Part shown: piece after piece, positions 34,201-53,848 of the stretch
Layout of the letters: the number at the start of each line of letters is the position of its first letter
Numbering within the stretch: the first letter of the stretch is position 1
Program-made: the position numbers and the translations under genes
Source of the DNA: Heterodera schachtii
Taxonomy: Eukaryota; Nematoda; Chromadorea; Rhabditida; Heteroderidae
NCBI GenBank assembly: GCA_023374025.1
Contig: SIJG01000003.1
Coordinates: forward strand, 3,613,154-3,677,153
Direction of reading: 5' to 3'
Length of the DNA stretch: 64,000 bases
Notes under the pieces: generated by a model
What the model was told of the DNA's origin: nothing
The model's database searches: none
The model's input: only the letters and a program-made list of their open reading frames with translations

Positions 34201-35520
34201 CCTAATTTATTGCTTAGGCTGCAATGATGAATGCATCAACCCAACATCAGCAGCAACAGAAATGCGCACTTGCAATTGGCACGGTTGTAGCCGGGGGCGA
34301 TGTTTCGGCTGAAAATGGCACTGGACAAGGCGCCATTGGTTGGTTGGCATTTTTCCCCGGGCTATTTTTCTTTTTGTATCATTTGTTCAAAAATGTGGGA
34401 TATGAAAATTACGGTAGTTTTACGGTATCATGCTATAAAGCAAAAAATGTGGGATATGAAAATTACGGTAGTTTTACGGGGTACACCCCAAAACGTCGCC
34501 GCCGAAACGTCGCCGCCGTAACGTCGCCGCCGAAACGTCGCCGGACAAAACGTCGCCAGCCCGAAACGTCGCCGGGACATAATGTCGCCGCAAAAAAAAA
34601 ATAAAAAATTTTCAAAATTTCAAAAAAAACAAAAAGTTTTTAGCTTTTTGAAAATCTAAGTTTAAAAAAAAAAAAAACTAAATTTGCTGAATTTCCGGGG
34701 AAAAAAGCAAAAAACTTGAAAATTTTTTAAAAATTTTCATGAATTTTCTTGATAAAAAATTTTTTTTGAATTTTTCTAGAATTTTTTTCGTATTAAGCTA
34801 GCTAACTAAATTTTTGACAATTTTTCTAAGTTTTTTTCTAAAATTTAAAAAAAAAATTTTGCGGCGACGTTATTTCCCGGCGACGTTTCGGACCGGCGAC
34901 GTTTTGTCCGGCGACGTTTCGGCGGCGACGTTACGGCGGCGACGTTTCGGCGGCGACGTTTTTTCCTGGTCCGAGTTTTACGGTATCTGCTAAAAGCATT
35001 TTTTTTTGTTCAGTTGCGGCCCAATTGCGACAACAGCAGCAACAAGCACAACAACAACAGCAACATCAGCAAAATGCGCAACTGACATCGAATACAATGC
35101 AACAGTTGTTGCTGCAACAGCACCAACAGAATTTGGCTGCTGCGCTGGCCCAACAACAACAGCAGCAACAAGTACAACAACAACACAATGCCAACGAGGT
35201 GGAAAAAAAATATGGCATTTAAAATATCAATATGGGAAAATTTTAAAACCATTTGGTGGCAGAGCATTGAGTTCATACAAAAAACAAAAAAACAGGGGGG
35301 GGGGGGGGGGGGAGGTCGTAGCGAAGAGGAAAAGAGCGTTTCTGAAAAGTGGTTAATTTCTTAACAAAATTATTTAAAAATTCTTAAAATTTCTCCTCGG
35401 CACTGCCGGACCCCCCACCCCCCCCTGCCTGTTCCTCAAAAATTTTTTTTTTTGAAAAAAGCGTTTTCTTTTTGTTCAGCTCTTGCGCCAACATCAGCAA
35501 CAGTTGCTGCAGCAACAATT

Positions 35521-44190: not shown

Positions 44191-44413
44191 GTGTCGTCCA
44201 TAAATACCAAATTTAATTTATTTCAATTTTACATTATTAATTTTTTTATGTGTTTTACATAATTTTTTTCTATCCACATTACTTGCTGAAAATTTATGTG
44301 CCGATCCAAAAGTTTGTTTTATGTTTTTAAAGATTTTTTACTAGATAAAAATTTTATTATGGATGGATTCAATAAATTATTTAGTTTTTTTTTAAAATTA
44401 TATTGTCAGAAAT

Positions 44414-45155
44414 GGCGCGCCAACGATTCGTCAACTCAGCCAAATGTCAACGATTCGTCAACTTAACGATTCGTCAACTCGACGATTCGTCAACTCAGCC
44501 AAAATGCGACGATTCGTCAACTCAGTCAAAAAATTATTTCAAAAAGCAGTTTCCATAGCTTTTCATGGCGCTTAACAAAATCAATTATAACACTAATTAG
44601 ACTAATTTAGAACCAAGAATACATAAAATCACGACCCTTCTGAACAAAAATTTATTCAAAAACTTGCATAAAACTAATTTTAGTAAACAAAAATTCAAAA
44701 CAACAAAACGAATCAATATGGTGATCATCGCGAGATTTAGGAAAAATGTTGCTGTCGTCGTAATCAGCATGCAGCTCTCCGAACTGCTTTGGTGCTTTTC
44801 GTCGTTTGTTGTTCAATTGTTTACGAATAGATTTCACTGATTTGCTAAAACTGAGAAACGACATTGAAATTGATTAAATGTAAGAAGTGTCAACGAGTCG
44901 CATGTTAAAGCATTTAAATGTCAAAAACAAAATAAATTACATAGTGCATATTATTTTTTAAATTAATTTTATGCATTATAAATCGTTGCCAATTCGAATT
45001 CGGGTTCGAATCGCTTTAAATGGATGTTAAAATTATTTTACGCGCCATGAAAAGCTTCAGAAATTGCTTTTTGAAGTAAATTTTGGATGAGTTGACGAAT
45101 CGTCACATTTTGGGTGAGTTGACGAATCATTGAGTTGACGAATCGAGGGGAGGCG
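44414..45155. mobile_element. Foldback MULE-like element with tandem-repeat TIRs (ACGATTCGTCAACTC type)
   Basis: 9-bp direct repeats GTCAGAAAT (44405-44413, 45156-45164) flank it. The left arm has five copies of CGATTCGTCAACT(C/T) with spacers CAGCCAAATG; the right arm has three inverted copies (GAGTTGACGAATCG). A second inverted pair follows inward (AGCTTTTCATGGCGC / GCGCCATGAAAAGCT). The core holds a 70-codon minus-strand open frame. Confidence 0.85.
44652..44864 (-). CDS. Hypothetical 70-aa ORF carried inside the foldback element
   Basis: ATG at 44864 to stop at 44652 on the minus strand. It starts MSFLSFSKSVKSIRKQLNNK, then charged and Asp-rich (HADYDDSN, KSRDDHHID), then hydrophobic and aromatic at the end. 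It is the only open frame of note in the core. Composition is less AT-biased than nearby chance frames. It may be chance or a captured host fragment; no function is suggested. Confidence 0.25.
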   Translation of the reverse strand: MSFLSFSKSVKSIRKQLNNKRRKAPKQFGELHADYDDSNIFPKSRDDHHIDSFCCFEFLFTKISFMQVFE

Positions 45156-45471
45156 GTCAGAAATATTTAAAAATAATACAAAATAATTCCCCTCTTCAAG
45201 TAAAATCAGAGCTGCCAACTGAAAATTTTTAAATTCAGCATTTGGCCGATAAAAATCATCATTTGGGGTCAAAAATCAGCTTTTTAGAAAATTTTATTCC
45301 AAATAAAAATAAGCAATGGAAATGTTTTTTTGAGGCTTTTTCCAAAAAACTTTTTTGGGAACAGGAGTTGGAAAAAATTTTGAAAATTTGAGTGCATTTT
45401 GTTAACAGATTTTCACCAAAAATGACCAATTTTCGCGATTTTGAGATAATTTTAAAGGAAAAAATGTTTTT

Positions 45472-45502
45472 GGGGCCGGCGGTATCGATAGGCGCCGCCG
45501 GG
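45472..45502. repeat. GC-hairpin dispersed repeat, copy 3
   Basis: GGCCGGCGGTATCGATAGGC plus GCCGCCGGG then AAAAATTT. Preceded by GTTAACAGATTTTCACCAAA and AATGACCAATTTTCGC, i.e. the same family with block order rearranged. Confidence 0.6.
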
Positions 45503-46199
45503 AAAAATTTGAAAAAAAGGGGGTTGGTAGCATTTTAGATAAAATGGCCATTTTCCTAATGGAGACATCGGCGGCGTCGGCGAAATAACGATCAAAGGGG
45601 CTGGAGCCGTTCAGCATTGGTTGACCCGGAGGATACACCCCTTGCTGAAGGGACCTGAAGTGGCGGTAATGACCGCCAACAAACTGGCCGACACCAAAAT
45701 TCAACACGTGGTGGACTGCCTTGTTGTGAACATAATGATCTTTTAAAATGCCAAATTCTTATAAAATGATACGATTACATAATGAATAAATTTTGGTCAA
45801 AAAATTTTGGTTTATCCATTTTTGTTATTAGTTTGAAGAGTTTTCCAATTTCTTTTTTTTAATTCAAATTTTTTTTTCTTTTAAAATTATGGATTTTGAT
45901 TTTTTAAATTAAAAATCATATTTTCTTGCAAAAAATCGGCTTTTTTCATCCCGGTCGAAAACTATGACGATTTCTGCCGCAGTGTCGGTCTTGATGCCAA
46001 TTACCAGCACTTTCTTTATTCATTGCGGCCCCACAAAACTAGCACCATGTTTTAAGGTGCAAAAAATTTGTTATTTTGTTAAATTACGTTGGTAAAAAAC
46101 TCCGAATATCCTCACAATTTTATTTCATTTGATGCATGGGTATATGTATTTGAAATTGTTATTTAAATAATTAATTTCATATACCATTTTTCGAGCAGT

Positions 46200-46255
46200 T
46201 TGGAACAGCCACTTTGGCGCGGGTTTTTGGCGCGAGCTTTTTTGGCGCTGTTAAT
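46200..46255. repeat. Short array of TTTTGGCGC units
   Basis: CTTTGGCGCGGG, TTTTTGGCGCGAG and TTTTTTGGCGCTG follow each other. The spaced CpG-containing unit resembles the terminal arrays of the foldback elements, but no inverted partner was found. Confidence 0.4.
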
Positions 46256-46360
46256 TGCGCAAAAATTTAAAAAATTGTCAAAAAAAATTAATTATCTTTC
46301 ATTGTGCTTGACTATATGCTATTTTTTACAGCAATGGTGTAGAATTGTGGTACTATTCAC

Positions 46361-46857
46361 TAGGGCTGCAAAAAATATGGTTATAAATTCCCGAAATATG
46401 GGCATAAAATAAGGACCAAAAATCACAAAATATGGATATAAAATTGCAAAAATTTGACATAAATTTTCCAAAAAAATTGAGGGTATAATTTCTGAAAATT
46501 TCTTCAAATTCGCTAAATGTAAGTAAAACTTTCATAAATGGTTAAATATAGCATTAAAAATCATTTTAGAAGAAAAAAAACATGATATAGCTAAAATGAA
46601 AATTCTCTCCGCTTTTAGGGGGTCAAAAAGGCCAATTTAGCTGATGGAGGCCATTCAAATAGAGGTTTTTTGGAAAAATGCCGAAATATGGACATAATGC
46701 CAAAATATGGACAAATATGGGAATATGGACATAAATCGCGTGGATATAGAATGATGCATCCTAGAAGCTTCAAACCATGCTAAAAACATGTTTTTCGTGC
46801 GTTTCAGGCCCCCCACAGTCCAGAAAAATATGGATTTTCATATAATTTGAAGCCCTA
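46361..46857. mobile_element. hAT-like element rich in AATATGG motifs
   Basis: It starts TAGGGCTGCAAAAAATATGG and ends ATATAATTTGAAGCCCTA; flanks CTATTCAC and CAAATCAC match at six of eight positions. AAATATGG/ATATGGACATA recurs about ten times near both ends. A truncated relative of the right end is at about 56036-56184. Confidence 0.65.
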
Positions 46858-47046
46858 CAAATCACCTTTCATATGTTGTGATGAAGCTTCTGATTTCTAA
46901 TGCTTTCGCCTTGGCCCAATTCTCATCGGAATAAATATGTTTTACTTAAGAAATAAAACAACTTTAATGAACGAATTTAAATTACTCGCAAATGTCATTC
47001 TTCATTTCAGGATATTTTTTATTTGTTATTTTTTTTAATTTGCGAT

Positions 47047-47370
47047 AAAGCAGGGTTCGCACTCGTCCTTGGATGCCTAGGATGTCCTTGGATTAGGGCC
47101 TCGCTGATTAGAAAATTGAAAGAGTCCTTATTTCCAAGAATGTCCTTGAAAATCAGCACTCGAAAAAAATCAAAAGTTTACAATTTTTGTAAAATTTGAT
47201 CGCTTTTGGACAAAATTTGTTAACAAAATGATTCAATTTTTCCAAAAATTAAATTTTGGAAAAAATTCATTCTGGCGAAAATAAAATCACTTGAATTAAA
47301 GCTATCATTTTTTTCATTGAATATGATAAAATTTTGAAGTGTCCTTGAATTTAATGCAATTTTCCCCCGC
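47047..47370. repeat. Possible hAT-like left end with GTCCTTG motifs
   Basis: CAGGGTTCGCACTCGTCCTT begins a stretch with GTCCTTGGA/GTCCTTGAA/GAGTCCTTA repeated five times or so. The pattern (terminal CAGGG plus many copies of a short motif) resembles the TAGGG elements in this window, but no right end or target duplication was found. Confidence 0.35.
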
Positions 47371-47472
47371 CGGACCCCAAAAAGTTTTTTTCCTTAAAAA
47401 ATTGGCTAAAAATCGCAAAAATTTGTCATTTTTGGTGAAACTCTGCTAATAAATTGCATTTCGAAAAAATTT

Positions 47473-47503
47473 TCCCGGCGGCGCCTACCGGCACCGCCTG
47501 ATC
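47473..47503. repeat. GC-hairpin dispersed repeat, copy 4 (inverted)
   Basis: AAATTTTCCCGGCGGCGCCT plus ACCGGCACCGCC is the reverse orientation of copies 1-3, with GCAAAAATTTGTCATTTTTG and GGTGAAACTCTGCTAATAAA nearby on the same side as expected for the inverted form. Confidence 0.6.
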
Positions 47504-47590
47504 CGTTTTCTGGAAAAGAACGCGCCGTAGTTTCATCTTAAAAAAATTTTCCAAATGATGATTTTTGACCCCAAATGATGGTTTTTTTTA

Positions 47591-47760
47591 GAGCCCGGAA
47601 TTTTGAAAATTGCCGGGTCCGAGGCGGGATCCTGAGACCGGGAATTCCGTTTTTCGGGCCCTCTCGTTTTTCCGGGACTCCCGGTCCCGGTAGTTTGTCG
47701 AAAAAACGCTGCCAAGAGTCCTGGAAGTTTACCGGCGGGGCCCCGGTACCGTCCAGGCTC
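47591..47760. mobile_element. GC-rich mariner-like MITE, second copy
   Basis: TA (47589-47590, 47761-47762) flanks ends GAGCCCGGAATTTTG and CCGTCCAGGCTC. The interior is GC-rich with CCGGGACTCCCGGTCCCGG-like palindromes in otherwise AT-rich DNA. Same family as 13862-14026. Confidence 0.65.
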
Positions 47761-47762
47761 TA

Positions 47763-48937
47763 ATTCCTTTGACCAATTAGAAGTGTTTTTTACTGCTTGA
47801 TGCATTTACATTTTTAGCAATTTTTGTTTTACGAAGGGAATATAATTGATATATAAGTTAATATATACTACAAATTCGAGATAAAATTTGACTACTCAAT
47901 AGTTCAAAATATATTATATATAATTTAAATAATTCTTTTTGCTTTTGCCTTTTTGTGTCGCCAAAAAACGCCGTTCTCCATTTTTGAAATTTCAAATGAA
48001 ATGTTTTGTCTAACCCAGTTGTTCGTTCGACAAACAACATTACACAAATTGGTTTATTTATTTTGACAACCTTTGCCATTTTGGGGCGCATTTTTCGCCG
48101 CGACCCATTCAAAATCCAGGTTTATTTATTATTAATTGAATTACTCCGGCCCAAATATTCTTCAAAAATGTCACCAATTGTTTTCAAACATTAAATTCAT
48201 TTTGATTCAATAAGGCAACAAAATAAAATATTCATACTTCACTTTTTGAATAAAGTTTAATTGAGCAAAAAATAAATGGATTAAGCAAATAAAATTTTTA
48301 TTAACTCTTTTTAGGTAGCAAAACACATAAAGCTCAAAAAACTTCAATTTTATTAAATTTTTTTCAAATAAGGATAAATTTTTAAACCAAAAATTTTTTA
48401 TTAAGAAAATCAAATTTAATTTTTTGGGATTAATTTTTGAGAAAATTTTTCAAATTCTTATTGATGTATTTTCTGAAATTTTTTCGGGCCATTTCTTCGG
48501 GGTGTATTTTTCATTTTTAATGCATTTTTGTTAAGGATTTTTTCGAAAATCCTGAAATAGGCACATTAAGCACAAAAACCCCGAAATTCTTGCTTATCTA
48601 CACGTATTAAGTGCGCAAAAATTTTAGGCATTTGCCTAAATAAAGAAGCCCTACTGATCACTGATTGACTAGCCCTTTTCTGAACAGTAATATCCTCTCG
48701 ACCAATGATCTAGTGAATCCAAATGGAATGATTTGCTCTGGCTGATCAGAGTCCGGACAAACATTGATCAGTGTACATTTTATGCCAATCGAATTCCGTC
48801 AGAGCCCACCTAATTCTTAAACCAATTTTTACCAAGCCAACTGTCAAATCAGAGATAATTTGTTGAGCGCGTACTGCTTGAACTTGAACCCCTTCCCCGT
48901 TCATTGTCGAATAACTGTAATTGTTATAATTATAAAA
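47763..48937. other. Intergenic spacer before the secreted-protein gene
   Basis: AT-rich. AAATAAAGAAGCCCTA ending at about 48655 resembles the right terminus of the TAGGG hAT-like elements, without a partner. TGATCA words are frequent at 48655-48770. The promoter of the secreted-protein gene should lie here, but no motif is decisive. Confidence 0.4.
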
Positions 48938-51047
48938 ATGCTTTCTTCTTCCGCCTGCTGTACTCTGTTGGCCGCCCTCATTTCGGCGGCGTTTGTCTCC
49001 GTGGCAAATGCACAAAAGGTGAAGCAGTGCCTGTGCTCCAAAATTCAGCCCTGCACCCAAAAGTACATGAACACGTGGAAAACGTGCATGCGGCAGTGTA
49101 AGGTGAGCACCAACAAAACGATTCCCAAAAATGCCAGAAGTCGAAACACCGAGGCGAGGCCAAAGTGGCCAAGTTTGAATTCCGGGGCCAAAGTGTCAGA
49201 ATTTGTCCGTCCAATCGTTCTGAATTTTGTTCAGAGCCATCTGTCTGGCGTGGGCGGCAACGTGGACAGATTGGGCCACTGTTTGGACAGAAACTCGGCA
49301 CTGCTCCAATCGACGATTAAATGCACCCAATCGTATGGCCAAACGGCGTAAGTTTGGCTGTGGGTGAATGATTTGTGTATAAAAATAATCAAATTTTTTC
49401 CCATTTTCGATGTGCCAAATCGTCGGCAACAGCTAAGATGGTGCCCAAGCGATACCCGGAATCATTGGAAATTGCAACGATCAGTGAGATCAACCGGATG
49501 ATCAACAGCATGTAAGCCGGGGGAAGGGATGCAACTGATCAGATGGAAGGGCGGCATAGATCAAAAGGAGTGCTCAAAAAATGTAAGAGGGGCGAGCGAT
49601 CAAATTGATCAGATGAAGGGGCTCTGCATATACCAAACTAATTAAGGGTAATTATGATGAGACAAACAAATTCCATGCTGATAAAATTTTCTGATCCCGA
49701 AGAAATGGGATAAAATAAGATAATATCGTCATGATCCGGAAACAAGGGTAACAGGTTGATCACAAGTCGAGAATAATGCCACCATTTTAAATCCAATTAT
49801 TGCAGGGGCATCGAAGGCGCAATGAAAGATTTGATGGCGGTCGGCAAGAAAATGTTCGGCTGTACACGCAAATGCATGAGCAGCAAGGCGGGCAACTGCG
49901 AGAAGTCGCTCAGGTGGGGAACAACAATTTTCGTTTTGATTGTTCAGACCGACAAAGAAAAAAAACAAAAAAAGACGAGACTTTTCTAGAGCGAGACAGA
50001 AACAATAGCCTAAAATGTCGAACCGAAAATAGTCTCAGTGTGGGCGAACCGAAAATACCGTATTTTTCTCTAGTTATATGCCCGGCTTCATTAATCTACC
50101 CGTCTCCAATTATCTCCCCCTTTCTGAGTAGGTTGAAAAGTAATATACCCGGGCATATAATTAGTGAAAACACGGTAGGACCAGTGTCAAAAAAATAATT
50201 TAATTTAATTATTTTAGCAATTAATAATTTAAAAAATTTCAAAAAACAATATTATAAATTTTGTTAAACGTTTCTTCAATATTTTTTCTTCAAAGATTCT
50301 GCTCGAAATAAATGCTAGTTCCATTCCATTAATAAATGCAGAACAATGTGTGAATTGTAGCATTAGTGGAAAAAAAGAATAGAGATTTGGGCCTTAAGCA
50401 AGGGAAAATAAAAAAAACCTAGCAAAAATTAAAAAATTTGTTGTTTTTTTCTAAAAAATCTTCTAGAAAGCTTACTTGAAAATAAATTTGATGGGTTCAA
50501 GATTTTAAAACCAAAATTTCGTTTCAATGTGATTTGTTTTTTTTTATCGGAAATCATTGGCATTTTCATTTGCTTTGTCACTGGCATTCTTCTGTGTTCT
50601 GTTTTTCATTCAAAAAATGCCGCTTCAAATTTTGAATTGCCATGCCCAAAAACATTGCCTTTCTCCGCACATTCGTCGTTTTGTGCAGGTGCGGCTTGAA
50701 CTTACCGCCGGACAACGTGTTGGTCCAGCAGGTGAAGCGGTGCGCCATCAACAGCGGACTGAACACCGCCAACGCGAAAGCGATGTGCAAATGCGCGTCC
50801 GCCGCGGGCGTTAAGTGAGTGATAATTTTAATTATTTTTGTTTTGTCCTCGAAAAAAAGCAATTAAATTTGATTTTAAAATCTAATTAAGTTAATAATTT
50901 GGTTAAATATTGTAGGATATCACTGATCATCAACCCTGACCCAATAGTCATATTCATAACGCAATTAGTACTTATTGCCCAATTACAATTTTAATTCTTT
51001 CCAGAAATTTGACACCTGCCGTCTGCGCAAAGATCCGAGTCACCTAA
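48938..51047 (+). CDS. Secreted Cys-rich protein, six exons, unrecognised family
   Basis: Exons: 48938-49102, 49235-49347, 49434-49511, 49806-49913, 50689-50814, 51005-51047, totalling 633 nt (210 aa plus stop). The N-terminus is a clear signal peptide: hydrophobic CCTLLAALISAAFVSV, with cleavage likely after VANA. The mature part has many Cys, including CLCSKIQPC, CMRQC, GCTRKCMSS and AMCKCASAAG, so disulfide-bonded and secreted. Helical stretches between Cys suggest a small globular fold. I do not recognise the family; a nematode-specific secreted protein is inference. The junction from exon 2 to exon 3 is irregular: the canonical GT-AG sites give a phase that reads into TAA, and the frame is restored only if one C is skipped. 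AATAAA lies 161 nt after the stop. Confidence 0.75.
50058..50175. mobile_element. Tc1/mariner-type MITE
   Basis: A TA duplication (50056-50057, 50176-50177) flanks inverted ends CCGTATTTTTCTCTAG... and ...CTAATTATATGCCCGGG (complement of the right end). The inner part has GTCTCCAATTATC and GTAGGTTGAAAAGTAATA, shared with the 52095-52275 element, so they are one family. It lies in the intron before the 50689 exon. Confidence 0.75.
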
Positions 51048-51208
51048 ACTAAACATGATCCGACCAAAGAACAATCCTGACAATTTTTGTTTCCTTTTTG
51101 TGAGGGATTCATGTATTTAAAAATTTTTATTTAAATTTACATTGCATTCATTATTTTTTCCTGGGAAATAACTGTTAGTTTTTTTTTGTATATGTAATTA
51201 AAAAATTT

Positions 51209-51214
51209 AATAAA
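51209..51214 (+). terminator. Poly(A) signal of the secreted-protein gene
   Basis: AATAAA lies about 160 nt downstream of the TAA stop, in an AT-rich trailer, on the coding strand. Confidence 0.5.
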
Positions 51215-51888
51215 AGAATTCATTTATTCAAAAATAATTGGTTGAAATGTTTAAATTAATTAATTTTTGTATAATTAATAGGGATGTCAATTTTATGTAA
51301 ATACATATTTTTTCCTGGCTTCTCCATGCTATAAATAGTAGGAAAAACACTTTCTTTTCTGTGTTTGCATACAAAAATCGGGACTTTTATTTACATATTC
51401 GGGGTTTTTATACATATTTTACATATTTCGACGTTTAATACATATTTGGTACATGTTTTGGACTTTTTTCTAATATTTTTCATTTTTTTTTACATATTTT
51501 CAGGATTTTTATAGAAATTTTTAGAAATCCTCAAAAAAATCCAAAATTTCGGCAAATTTTTCGTACATATTTTCTTTTTTTTTTAATATTTTGAGAACTT
51601 TTTAAAATTTATAGAAATTTCTTGTGAAAAAATAACTAAATTTTTTTTTGAAAATGTACCCCTAAAAAATACCAAATATTAATTTTTAAAATACTAAATG
51701 ATGAAGCCTAATTAGGTTACATTTTGTGCATATCTTACCCTCTATAATGAATTTTTTTCCAAAAAATAACAATTTTAAAAATTTATTTACATATTTGGTA
51801 CATATTTTGGGTTTTTCTTACATATTTCGGGATTTTTTTTTACATATTTATGTACATATTTTGACCACTTTTTGTACATATTTTTGAC

Positions 51889-52771
51889 CGGTAGGGGTCA
51901 ACTGCGTCTGGCCAACTGCGTCTCGCCAACTGCGTCTCGCCAACTGCGTCTCGCCAACTGCGTCTCGCCAACTGCGTCTCGCCAACTGCGTCTAGGCAAC
52001 TGCGTCTTAGTAGTAAAAGGGCCAACTGCGTCTCAGTCAAAAAATCAATTAATACCCATAAAATATATTAAAAATTCAAAATGAAAAGCACTTATCGTAT
52101 ATGCTCTAATTATAGCCCAGTCTCTATTAATCGCGCAGTCTCCAATTATCCCCCAGTCTACGAGGTGTTTTGAAAAATAATCCCTCTATCATAATCCCCC
52201 AGTCTCTAATTATCCCTCAGTCTACGAGGAGGTTGAAAAATAATCCCCCATGGGCTATAATTAGAGCATATACGGTAAGCTTAGCCTTTATTACTTTATT
52301 GTTTTAGCGTCCAATTTGATATTAGAATTTTTTATACGAGTTGTCTGTGTATGAATTGCCTTTTTACGAATTATCATGACACCTTAGGTTTAACAAATCT
52401 AGTTAAAAATAATCAGGCAAAGAAACACTTCCTCTTAATTATTGGGGCGCCTAAACATGGACATACAAATAGCAAGGACTCATATAATGCCATAGAATGC
52501 GTAAACTATTTTTGGACGCGTAAAACGTGATCTGACGCGCATAAAACCGACAAGAACCGCCTTTATTTCTTCAATGTTTAATGCCAACGTGATTTTAAAT
52601 TGAATTTGAGGATTTGAAGCGCTACAACCAGGAAAAACAGCTTATAAAAATATTTTTAAAAAATTTTTCTAAGAAATTTTGAAATTAAATCAACTGAGAC
52701 GCAGTTGGCCCTTTTACTACTAAGACGCAGTTGGCCAGACGCAGTTGGCGAGACGCAGTTGGCCCGTTCCG
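51889..52771. mobile_element. Foldback MULE-like element with tandem-repeat TIRs (CCAACTGCGTCTCG type)
   Basis: 9-bp direct repeats ATTTTTGAC (51880-51888, 52772-52780) flank it. The left arm has eight or nine copies of a unit CCAACTGCGTCTCG with a variant GGCAACTGCGTCTTAGTAGT; the right arm has the inverted partner with the same variant spacer (TTTTACTACTAAGACGCAG) but fewer copies. Ends read CGGTAGGGGTCAACTGCG and, inverted, CGGAACGGGCCAACTGCG. No transposase frame. It sits inside the hAT-like element 51279-52787. Confidence 0.85.
52095..52275. mobile_element. Tc1/mariner-type MITE nested in the foldback element
   Basis: TA at 52093-52094 and 52276-52277 flank inverted ends TCGTATATGCTCTAATTATA and, inverted, CCGTATATGCTCTAATTATA. 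The interior carries two repeats of AGTCTCTAATTATCC / AGTCTACGAGG / GTTTTGAAAAATAATCC type, shared with the element at 50058-50175. Confidence 0.8.
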
Positions 52772-53463
52772 ATTTTTGACATCACTAATAATTAAATTGA
52801 AAAAATATGTGGCGTTCCATACGTCTCAAAAATTCAATTTTGGCTTGGGCCGCAAAATGTCGGTTTTTGGCTGAATTGCTAGATAAAGGGACAAAGGGCG
52901 GAGCTTCGAGTCCGTTGAGAGCAACATGAATATTTTTATTTATTTTTTGTCCAAAAAAAATCTAAAAATGACCATTTTTAAAATTATTTTGAAGATTTTT
53001 CCCAGCGGAATTGGACAATCTTGGTAAAGCTCATGATGAGGAGATCCCTTTTGTAAGCAAATCCTTTTAGGTTATGTTCGTAATTTTTTATCAATCGGTA
53101 TGCAAAATTTTTGTCAAATGTGTTGATAGAAAAAAGTTTTATTGAGAGAAGTAAATTCTGTATTTCTCTATTAACAGAGACAAAGAAATAGTAAGCCAAA
53201 AAGAGATGTTTTTTTTCTTCGCACTCTCTTTTTATTGGTTCATCTCTCGTTTTTTTTTGATCAAACGGATTATATAACACAGTCCCTATACTGAGCTTGA
53301 TCCTCTCTATCTTTTCTCACTCATTCAATCACCCTTCCCCTTTCTCTCTCTCCTTTGCTTCCTCTTTTTATCATTTTTTCCTCTATTCTTTATATCTCCG
53401 TTTTCTTTTTTCTCCATTTCTATATATTTTCGGTCTCCTTTTTTCTTTTTTGTGTTCTCTCTC

Positions 53464-53848
53464 ACTGTCTTTGGGACCCACCCGTTTCGGCGCTCACGTT
53501 TCGGCGCCAGCATGTTTTTCCACGATAGATTTTTTCTTTGGCATCCAAATCCAACAATCTTGGTATCATTCGAAAGCTCTTCACATGCTCTATTAACCTT
53601 ACCAAAAGCGAAAGGATTTTCAAGCCTGGAAAAAATTTTATTAAGAAAAAACTTCAAAAATTTCGACTTTTTGCAATTTTCATGTATAACTTTTTTTGTA
53701 ATTGTCTAATCGCGAAGCAATAGCTTAGAAAAAGCTTCTAAACACATTAAGCTTTCGAATGATACCAAGATTGTTGGATTTGGATGCCAAAGAAAAAAGC
53801 TATCGTGGAAAAACATGCTGGCGCCGAAACGTGAACGCCGAACTGTAG
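53464..53848. mobile_element. Foldback element with about 100-bp arms
   Basis: Direct repeats TTCTCTCTC (53455-53463, 53849-53857) flank it, but they lie in CT-rich DNA and so are weak evidence. The arms (about 53485-53580 and 53743-53842) are nearly identical inverted copies: CACGTTTCGGCGCCAGCATG, TTTTTCCACGATAG, TTTGGCATCCAAATCCAAC and GGTATCATTCGAAAGCT. The outer part repeats GTTTCGGCGC(T/C). GCGCCGAAACGTG resembles the units of 34479-34973. Confidence 0.7.

What the first reader, a model, noticed from the sequence alone, without database searches (positions are those of the whole stretch)
44414..52771. A diversified class of 9-bp-duplicating foldback elements with different terminal units
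34479-34973, 44414-45155 and 51889-52771, plus probably 53464-53848, share one architecture: 9-bp target duplication, ends beginning (G/C)G, arms built from short CpG-containing units, AT-rich core. The units differ (AACGTCGCC, CGATTCGTCAACTC, CCAACTGCGTCTCG, GTTTCGGCGC), although CGTC recurs in three and GCCGAAACGT is shared by two. This suggests fast turnover of a terminal binding array, perhaps co-evolving with different transposases. It may be an undescribed superfamily-level pattern in this lineage.
Basis: inference. Interest (0 to 1): 0.9.

Follow-up and report, generated by a model that had tools for sequence, protein, structure and literature searches.

The report
Jumping genes with swappable end codes
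Four foldback elements in this stretch, from what is probably a cyst nematode, have ends built of short tandem repeats that closely match the ends of Mutator-type transposase loci in the same genome; the repeat differs by as little as one letter between sister families yet is almost uniform inside each element, so it likely acts as a changeable address label that each transposase would recognise.

Summary
Elements A (44414-45155), B (51889-52771) and C (34479-34973) have exact 9-bp target duplications and inverted arrays of different units; D (about 53473-53848) has the arrays but no duplication. All are multicopy. In the four groups 42 of 53 copies with both ends found have exact 8-10 bp duplications, against 2 of 730 cross-locus pairs, so '9 bp' is really 8-9. 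Of 30 MULE transposase loci fetched (of 95 matches), 21 carry an inverted pair of arrays and 28 at least one, with about 20 different units. Each window unit lies one substitution from the unit of a MULE locus. Units track the transposase (Mantel r 0.66, 0 of 9999 permutations). The architecture is not undescribed: Tm1 of Meloidogyne and Muta1 of Aedes have it, with FLYWCH-MULE transposases. What looks new is scale and turnover: sister families differ by one base fixed in nearly every counted unit of both arms, and one 250-bp MITE core occurs under five terminal types, including all four states of a two-position TTnGGCnC code. Recognition of the unit by the transposase is inferred, not shown.

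The parts
44405..44413 (.). target-site duplication of A, left copy (GTCAGAAAT)
44414..44530 (+). A left arm: cap GGCGCGCC and tandem units CGATTCGTCAACTC
44531..45085 (+). A core, AT-rich; copies elsewhere carry longer interiors
45086..45155 (-). A right arm, inverted units, other cap (CGCCTCCCC read inward)
45156..45164 (.). target-site duplication of A, right copy
51880..51888 (.). target-site duplication of B, left copy (ATTTTTGAC)
51889..52040 (+). B left arm: cap CGGTAGGGGT and tandem units CCAACTGCGTCTCG
52090..52278 (.). unrelated short repeat inside the core of B, found without B at about 20 other places
   Evidence: rows covering about query 202-390 alone; sequence
52688..52771 (-). 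B right arm, inverted units, cap CGGAACGGGC read inward
52772..52780 (.). target-site duplication of B, right copy
34470..34478 (.). target-site duplication of C, left copy (AGTTTTACG)
34479..34595 (+). C left arm: cap GGGTACACCCC and units AAACGTCGCCGCCG
34861..34973 (-). C right arm, inverted units, cap CGGACCAGG read inward
34974..34982 (.). target-site duplication of C, right copy
53473..53848 (+). D: non-autonomous copy with cap GGGACCCACC, units CGTTTCGGCGCTCA and a 250-bp core with inverted ends; right cap degraded, no target duplication found

Best explanation
The four arrays are the arms of non-autonomous elements whose caps and units match, to within about one base per unit, those beside MULE (Mutator-type) transposase loci in the same genome, and each tandem unit is likely a binding site read by the transposase of its own lineage. 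Shown: asymmetric GG/CG caps, inverted arrays of 14-16 bp units, 8-9 bp target duplications, multicopy families, MULE loci with the same kind of ends, near-uniform units within an element, and one MITE core under several terminal types. [quoted passage not shown] Inferred: when the finger of a lineage shifts, array turnover (slippage, unequal exchange or conversion between arms) carries one substitution through the units, and only elements with the new unit keep moving. Inferred: a MITE core persists by acquiring the arms of whichever transposase is active, as a whole (cap plus units) or unit by unit.
For: MULE link: of 30 MULE loci (best 30 of 95 matches) 21 have an automatic inverted array pair, against 2 of 19 window pieces, which hold C and B themselves; 28 of 30 have a pair or at least one array, a looser test that 8 of 19 window pieces also pass. 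Pfam finds FLYWCH and MULE in one intact 504-aa frame (L059), and on separate frames of L070 and of L048. The predicted fold (mean pLDDT 89) is nearest to ISCth4 transposase, E 3.4e-7 but TM only 0.32-0.39. Duplications: 42 of 53 complete pairs, control 2 of 730; for MULE loci 11 of 20 with both array ends in hand, plus L071. Window units are each one substitution from a MULE-locus unit (0 of 300 shuffles each). Co-divergence: Mantel r 0.66, 0 of 9999, 21 families; on the transposase tree seven unit classes need 6 changes, the minimum, 0 of 200 shuffles. Uniformity, counting units with exact neighbours: A 99 TCAA and 0 TCTA in 8 loci, 66 TCTA and 0 TCAA in L071, L080, L081; B 278 to 0 in 17 loci, 0 to 7 in L070; C 124 to 1 in 16 loci, 0 to 7 in L063. 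D core: over 21 copies and three MULE loci 156 of 157 units match their element's majority, shuffle maximum 103. L101 shares 26 terminal letters, cap and unit, with MULE locus L074.
Against: No binding was or could be tested. Unit and transposase are linked in cis, so co-divergence would arise without recognition. Over 14 families the partial Mantel test does not single out FLYWCH (r 0.23, 138 of 4999; catalytic domain 0.19, 207 of 4999). In only 11 of 21 families does the nearest protein also carry the nearest unit, ties included; for L070, L071 and L072 it ranks 15th, 11th and 7th. For B and C the transposase link is one-sided: L070 and L063 show an array on one side only. For A no FLYWCH was found in the two L071 frames tested (weak profile match) and its MULE match has stops. 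L047 has no duplication. 9 of 30 MULE loci lack a detected pair; L046 and L050 lack any array. PMC3169594 notes that the Tm1 finger lacks its last histidine and may not bind DNA.
Confidence: 0.76

Rival explanations
1. The units are spacers: the transposase reads only the caps, and arrays grow and are homogenised by slippage and conversion, so unit identity is neutral and merely inherited.
For: Caps are alike within lineages; arrays vary in length; co-divergence is expected from cis linkage alone.
Against: L069 and L074 share caps but differ in unit, so caps alone would not separate them. Units are near-uniform across both arms and across copies. D-core copies L043, L044 and L101 carry the cap and unit types of MULE loci L047 and L074. 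VANC of Arabidopsis MULEs binds such tandem motifs (PMC5735166, passages).
Confidence: 0.2
2. The arrays serve expression or silencing rather than transposition: a MULE-encoded or host protein binds them to keep the element active, as VANC does at VANDAL elements.
For: Tandem, rapidly diverging, family-specific motifs in MULEs are the VANC targets (PMC5735166, abstract and passages).
Against: Here arrays sit at both ends, inverted, directly inside the caps, also in copies of about 400 bp. A second gene beside the transposase was not searched for.
Confidence: 0.08
3. The four window elements belong to unrelated superfamilies that converged on foldback ends.
For: Foldback ends occur with a P-type transposase in Galileo (PMC3573991, passages); A's MULE relative L071 is on a long branch.
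Against: All four have their nearest unit, one base away, at a MULE locus; A, B and C have GG/CG caps and 9-bp duplications.
Confidence: 0.04

Closest known systems
Tm1 Mutator/Foldback elements of Meloidogyne (PMC3169594)
   Same: Asymmetric 7-bp caps, inverted tandem arrays of about 14-bp units, 8-10 (mostly 9) bp duplications, FLYWCH plus MULE transposase, MITE-like copies.
   Different: One family with one unit there; here about 20 distinct units among 30 MULE loci, and one core under five terminal types. The Tm1 unit is not significantly close to any unit here (20 of 200 shuffles reach the best score).
Muta1 and other Aedes aegypti MULE families (PMC5225508)
   Same: 14 families, 8-9 bp duplications, 10 of 12 long-TIR families with 9-15 bp subterminal tandem repeats, FLYWCH in 13, Muta1 with a 504-aa transposase and active in yeast.
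   Different: In the passages read: no comparison of units between sister families, no single-base concerted differences, no core shared between families.
VANDAL elements with VANC proteins in Arabidopsis (PMC5735166)
   Same: MULEs whose family-specific short motifs lie in tandem, change together and are said to co-evolve with a protein that binds them.
   Different: VANC is an anti-silencing protein and the arrays are in internal non-coding regions; here the arrays are the transposon arms.
Galileo in Drosophila mojavensis (PMC3573991)
   Same: Foldback-like arms with tandem repeats, chimeric copies with arms of one subfamily and interior of another.
   Different: P-superfamily transposase, 7-bp duplications, tandem repeats of about 210 bp rather than short units.
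Rehavkus
   Same: 9-bp duplications, arms of 26-400 bp, a minisatellite (PMC6446971, passages).
   Different: PHD finger in the transposase there; FLYWCH here.

Membership tests
MULE (Mutator-like) superfamily | MULE/DDE transposase | tested here: met
   PF10551 over cut-off at loci with these arrays; D225, D287 and E420 invariant or at least 90% conserved in 35 aligned sequences. Met for loci with like ends; the window copies themselves have no transposase.
MULE (Mutator-like) superfamily | 8-10 bp target duplications | tested here: met
   42 of 53 complete pairs
Tm1/Muta-type foldback MULE | terminal caps plus inverted arrays of short (about 9-17 bp) units | tested here: met
Tm1/Muta-type foldback MULE | N-terminal FLYWCH finger | tested here: inconclusive
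   found at L059, L070, L048, L045; not found in the L071 frames tested, so open for family A
Tm1 itself | Motif C CGATTCAGTATCCGC | tested here: not met
   best similarity 0.45, reached by 20 of 200 shuffles
Phantom subclass | place in the Phantom clade of transposases | not tested
   no Phantom reference was put in the tree; the name is that of the Tm1 authors
Rehavkus | PHD finger in the transposase | tested here: not met
   no PHD model among the matches of 10 frames of five loci
VANDAL | separate VANC gene bound to the arrays | not tested
   no such gene was searched for

The most novel reading that the evidence does not exclude
The unit is a combinatorial address: in one clade the two variable letters of TTnGGCnC occur in all four states, near-uniform within each element, and each state with its caps would mark a separate transposase lineage (MULE loci are in hand for two of the four). 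A MITE core moves from one transposase to another by changing this code, so transposon 'speciation' is caught as single-letter changes of a zinc-finger binding site swept through both arms.
Probability: 0.35. Interest if true: 0.82.

Novelty: new variant of a known kind. Interest (0 to 1): 0.62.

Why it matters
How a transposase and its ends change specificity together, when many copies must change, is a long-standing question. This genome offers natural pairs, such as L069/L074 and L068/L073, 97% and 83% identical over the catalytic domain, with units one to three bases apart, and non-autonomous copies wearing different codes, so a change of specificity becomes directly testable with a zinc finger and short oligonucleotides. 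It also warns that repeat annotation by core or by arm alone would split or merge such families wrongly.

Tried and rejected
Rejected: C and D as near relatives because both hold GCCGAAACGT; inward-read units run in opposite directions. Rejected: strict 9-bp duplication as defining the class. Rejected: FLYWCH alone as the part that tracks the unit; the partial Mantel test cannot separate it from the catalytic domain. Rejected: Tm1 as the same family by unit. Led nowhere: a PDB sequence search with the 504-aa transposase (no match up to E 1); the search for a MULE locus with D-type TTTCGGCGC ends, and a check of A-type TCAA ends beside relatives of the L071 gene at C9 and C3 (not completed). 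Coordinates put A-type arms around relatives of the L071 gene, for example C9:2470680-2473760, but those letters were not read.
Full report
What is there. The window holds three elements with exact 9-bp target duplications and inverted arrays of short units, A, B and C, and a fourth, D, with arrays but no duplication. Their ends begin GG or CG, and the two ends of one element carry different caps (for A, GGCGCGCC and CGCCTCCCC; for B, CGGTAGGGG and CGGAACGGG; for C, GGGTACACCCC and CGGACCAGG). Arms are richer in GC than cores. C lies in a tandem duplication whose other copy shows the empty site.

Not chance. The genome searches report 228, 199, 95 and 93 matching stretches for A, B, C and D; only the 40 best candidates were scored each time. 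I examined 82 loci of the four groups, some transposase-bearing ones included. Both caps were found in 53, and exact 8-10 bp duplications in 42 of these: A 5 of 6, B 17 of 17, C 13 of 17, D 7 of 13. Flanks paired across loci match in 2 of 730 trials. Three pairs of loci share one duplication sequence and are probably copies of one insertion, the duplication of L014 is B cap sequence and doubtful, three loci are the window's own, and among several cap pairs in a locus one with a duplication was preferred.

The transposases. A search with the MULE domain gave 95 matches, of which the best 30 were fetched with 1.5 kb on each side. By an automatic test 21 of 30 have tandem arrays of the same unit on both sides in opposite orientation; of 19 window pieces treated alike 2 have such a pair, and these hold C and B. 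By a looser test, a pair or one array, 28 of 30 pass, but so do 8 of 19 window pieces, some by low-complexity repeats. Eleven of 20 loci with both array ends in hand have exact duplications of 8-10 bp directly outside GG or CG caps, and L071 has one of 8 bp. L058, L059 and L060 keep an open 504-codon frame, in L059 with FLYWCH and MULE domains. The predicted structure is confident from about residue 40 on; the best match among solved structures is ISCth4 transposase, E 3.4e-7, with a low TM score of 0.32-0.39 (that ISCth4 is of the IS256 family is recalled). D225, D287 and E420 are invariant or nearly so in 35 aligned sequences; Muta1 has D214, D283, E419 (PMC5225508 passages).

Matching window to transposase. 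Each window unit is one substitution away from the unit of a MULE locus and further from the others: A from L071, B from L070, C from L063, D from L047; none of 300 shuffled versions of each reaches this. L071 is a 3.1-kb element with the two A caps and a MULE gene with stops. The B terminus CGGTAGGGGTCAACTGCGTC is present letter for letter beside the MULE gene in L070, but the other arm was not found. L063 and L066 have the C cap with one letter changed (GGTGCACCCC) and an array on one side each. L047 has D-type caps and arrays on both sides but no duplication.

Turnover. Families differ by one or few letters that are fixed in nearly all counted units. Counting units with exact neighbours only: in 8 A loci 99 of 99 read TCAA, in L071, L080 and L081 66 of 66 read TCTA; in 17 of the 20 B loci held (L070 apart) 278 of 278 read CAACTGCGTCT, in L070 7 of 7 CAACTGCGTCC; in 16 of the 24 C loci held 124 of 125 read ACGTCGCC, in L063 7 of 7 ACGTCGTC. 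L069 and L074, whose MULE domains are 97% identical, have the same caps and units with GGGCGC and GGGCCC.

One core, several codes. Twenty-one copies of the 250-bp D core were compared, all that I held of the 40 that one search scored (2589 candidates). They come with five terminal types: TTTCGGCGC with GGGACCC/GGTCCAC caps (11 copies, two of them identical), TTTGGGCGC with the same cap group (2), GTTGGGCGC with CGGTCTACCTCAG/CGGAACCGCTCAG caps where these were in reach (6), GTTGGGCCC with a cap of MULE locus L074 (1), GTTCGGCCC (1). With MULE loci L047, L069 and L074 added, 156 of 157 units carry the majority state of their own element; shuffling units among elements gives at most 103. The only mixed copy, L043, keeps the other unit next to the core. 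On the core tree the five types need 5 changes, one above the minimum of 4; most forks are weak, and the only well-supported clade that is a whole type is the GTTGGGCGC group. So the terminal type has changed at least four times on this core. No MULE locus with TTTCGGCGC or GTTCGGCCC ends was found among the 30.

Units follow transposases. Over 21 families, unit similarity and catalytic-domain identity correlate with r 0.66, and none of 9999 permutations reaches it; with FLYWCH, over 16 families, r is 0.58, also 0 of 9999. The nearest protein carries the nearest unit in 11 of 21 families, ties included; L070, L071 and L072 depart most. Seven unit classes that I named fall on the transposase tree with 6 changes, the minimum, against 0 of 200 shuffles; near-copies are included and long branches, L071 and L072 above all, are insecure. 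FLYWCH does not clearly track units better than the catalytic domain once the other is held fixed (14 families). This is co-inheritance; it fits recognition but does not prove it.

What is known. Tm1 of root-knot nematodes has the same anatomy: asymmetric caps, about 14-bp tandem units, mostly 9-bp duplications, FLYWCH-MULE transposase, MITE-like copies (PMC3169594, parts 1-4 of 8 read). Aedes aegypti has 14 MULE families with 8-9 bp duplications, 10 of 12 long-TIR ones with 9-15 bp subterminal repeats, 13 with FLYWCH; Muta1 transposes in yeast (PMC5225508, passages). VANC proteins of Arabidopsis MULEs bind family-specific tandem motifs that change together (PMC5735166, abstract and passages). 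Galileo shows chimeras with arms of one subfamily and interior of another (PMC3573991, passages). Rehavkus is compared from passages of PMC6446971. In the listings I saw no title on such elements in cyst nematodes or on one MULE core under several terminal types; the passages seen of the Heterodera glycines genome paper speak of DNA transposons in general (PMC6367775). Only open-access papers were searched, and most were seen as listings alone.

Host.

Verdict. A real and coherent pattern, of a described kind, with an unusually clear record of how the terminal sites of a transposon lineage change. Limits: no binding data, one-sided transposase links for B and C, no FLYWCH seen for A, 65 of 95 MULE matches not fetched, and no genome-wide count of unit types because the genome tool stopped answering.

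Noticed in passing
window 52090-52278: A short repeat with its own inverted ends (GTATATGCTCTAATTATAGCCC) lies inside the core of B and occurs alone at about 20 other places in the genome.
   Followed up: no
L080 near 1535 and L081 near 1016 (C75, C160): An A element of the L071 type (TCTA units) is inserted in the right arm of a B element, with MULE fragments beside its array: nested foldback elements.
   Followed up: partly
L055 1-927: One arm of a MULE locus has about 58 units (GGCAACTCATCCACA type), against about 6 in the other arm.
   Followed up: no
window 46213-46248: Two or three units TTTGGCGCGAGCGTT without a detected inverted partner; might be a decayed arm.
   Followed up: no
L059 and L060 (C129:220020-222350): Two copies of the element with the open 504-codon transposase frame stand head to tail, their ends a few bases apart; a third is at C9:177175.
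   Followed up: no
window 34378-34480: The insertion site of C lies in a tandem duplication of host sequence, between glutamine-rich frames that look like exons.
   Followed up: no
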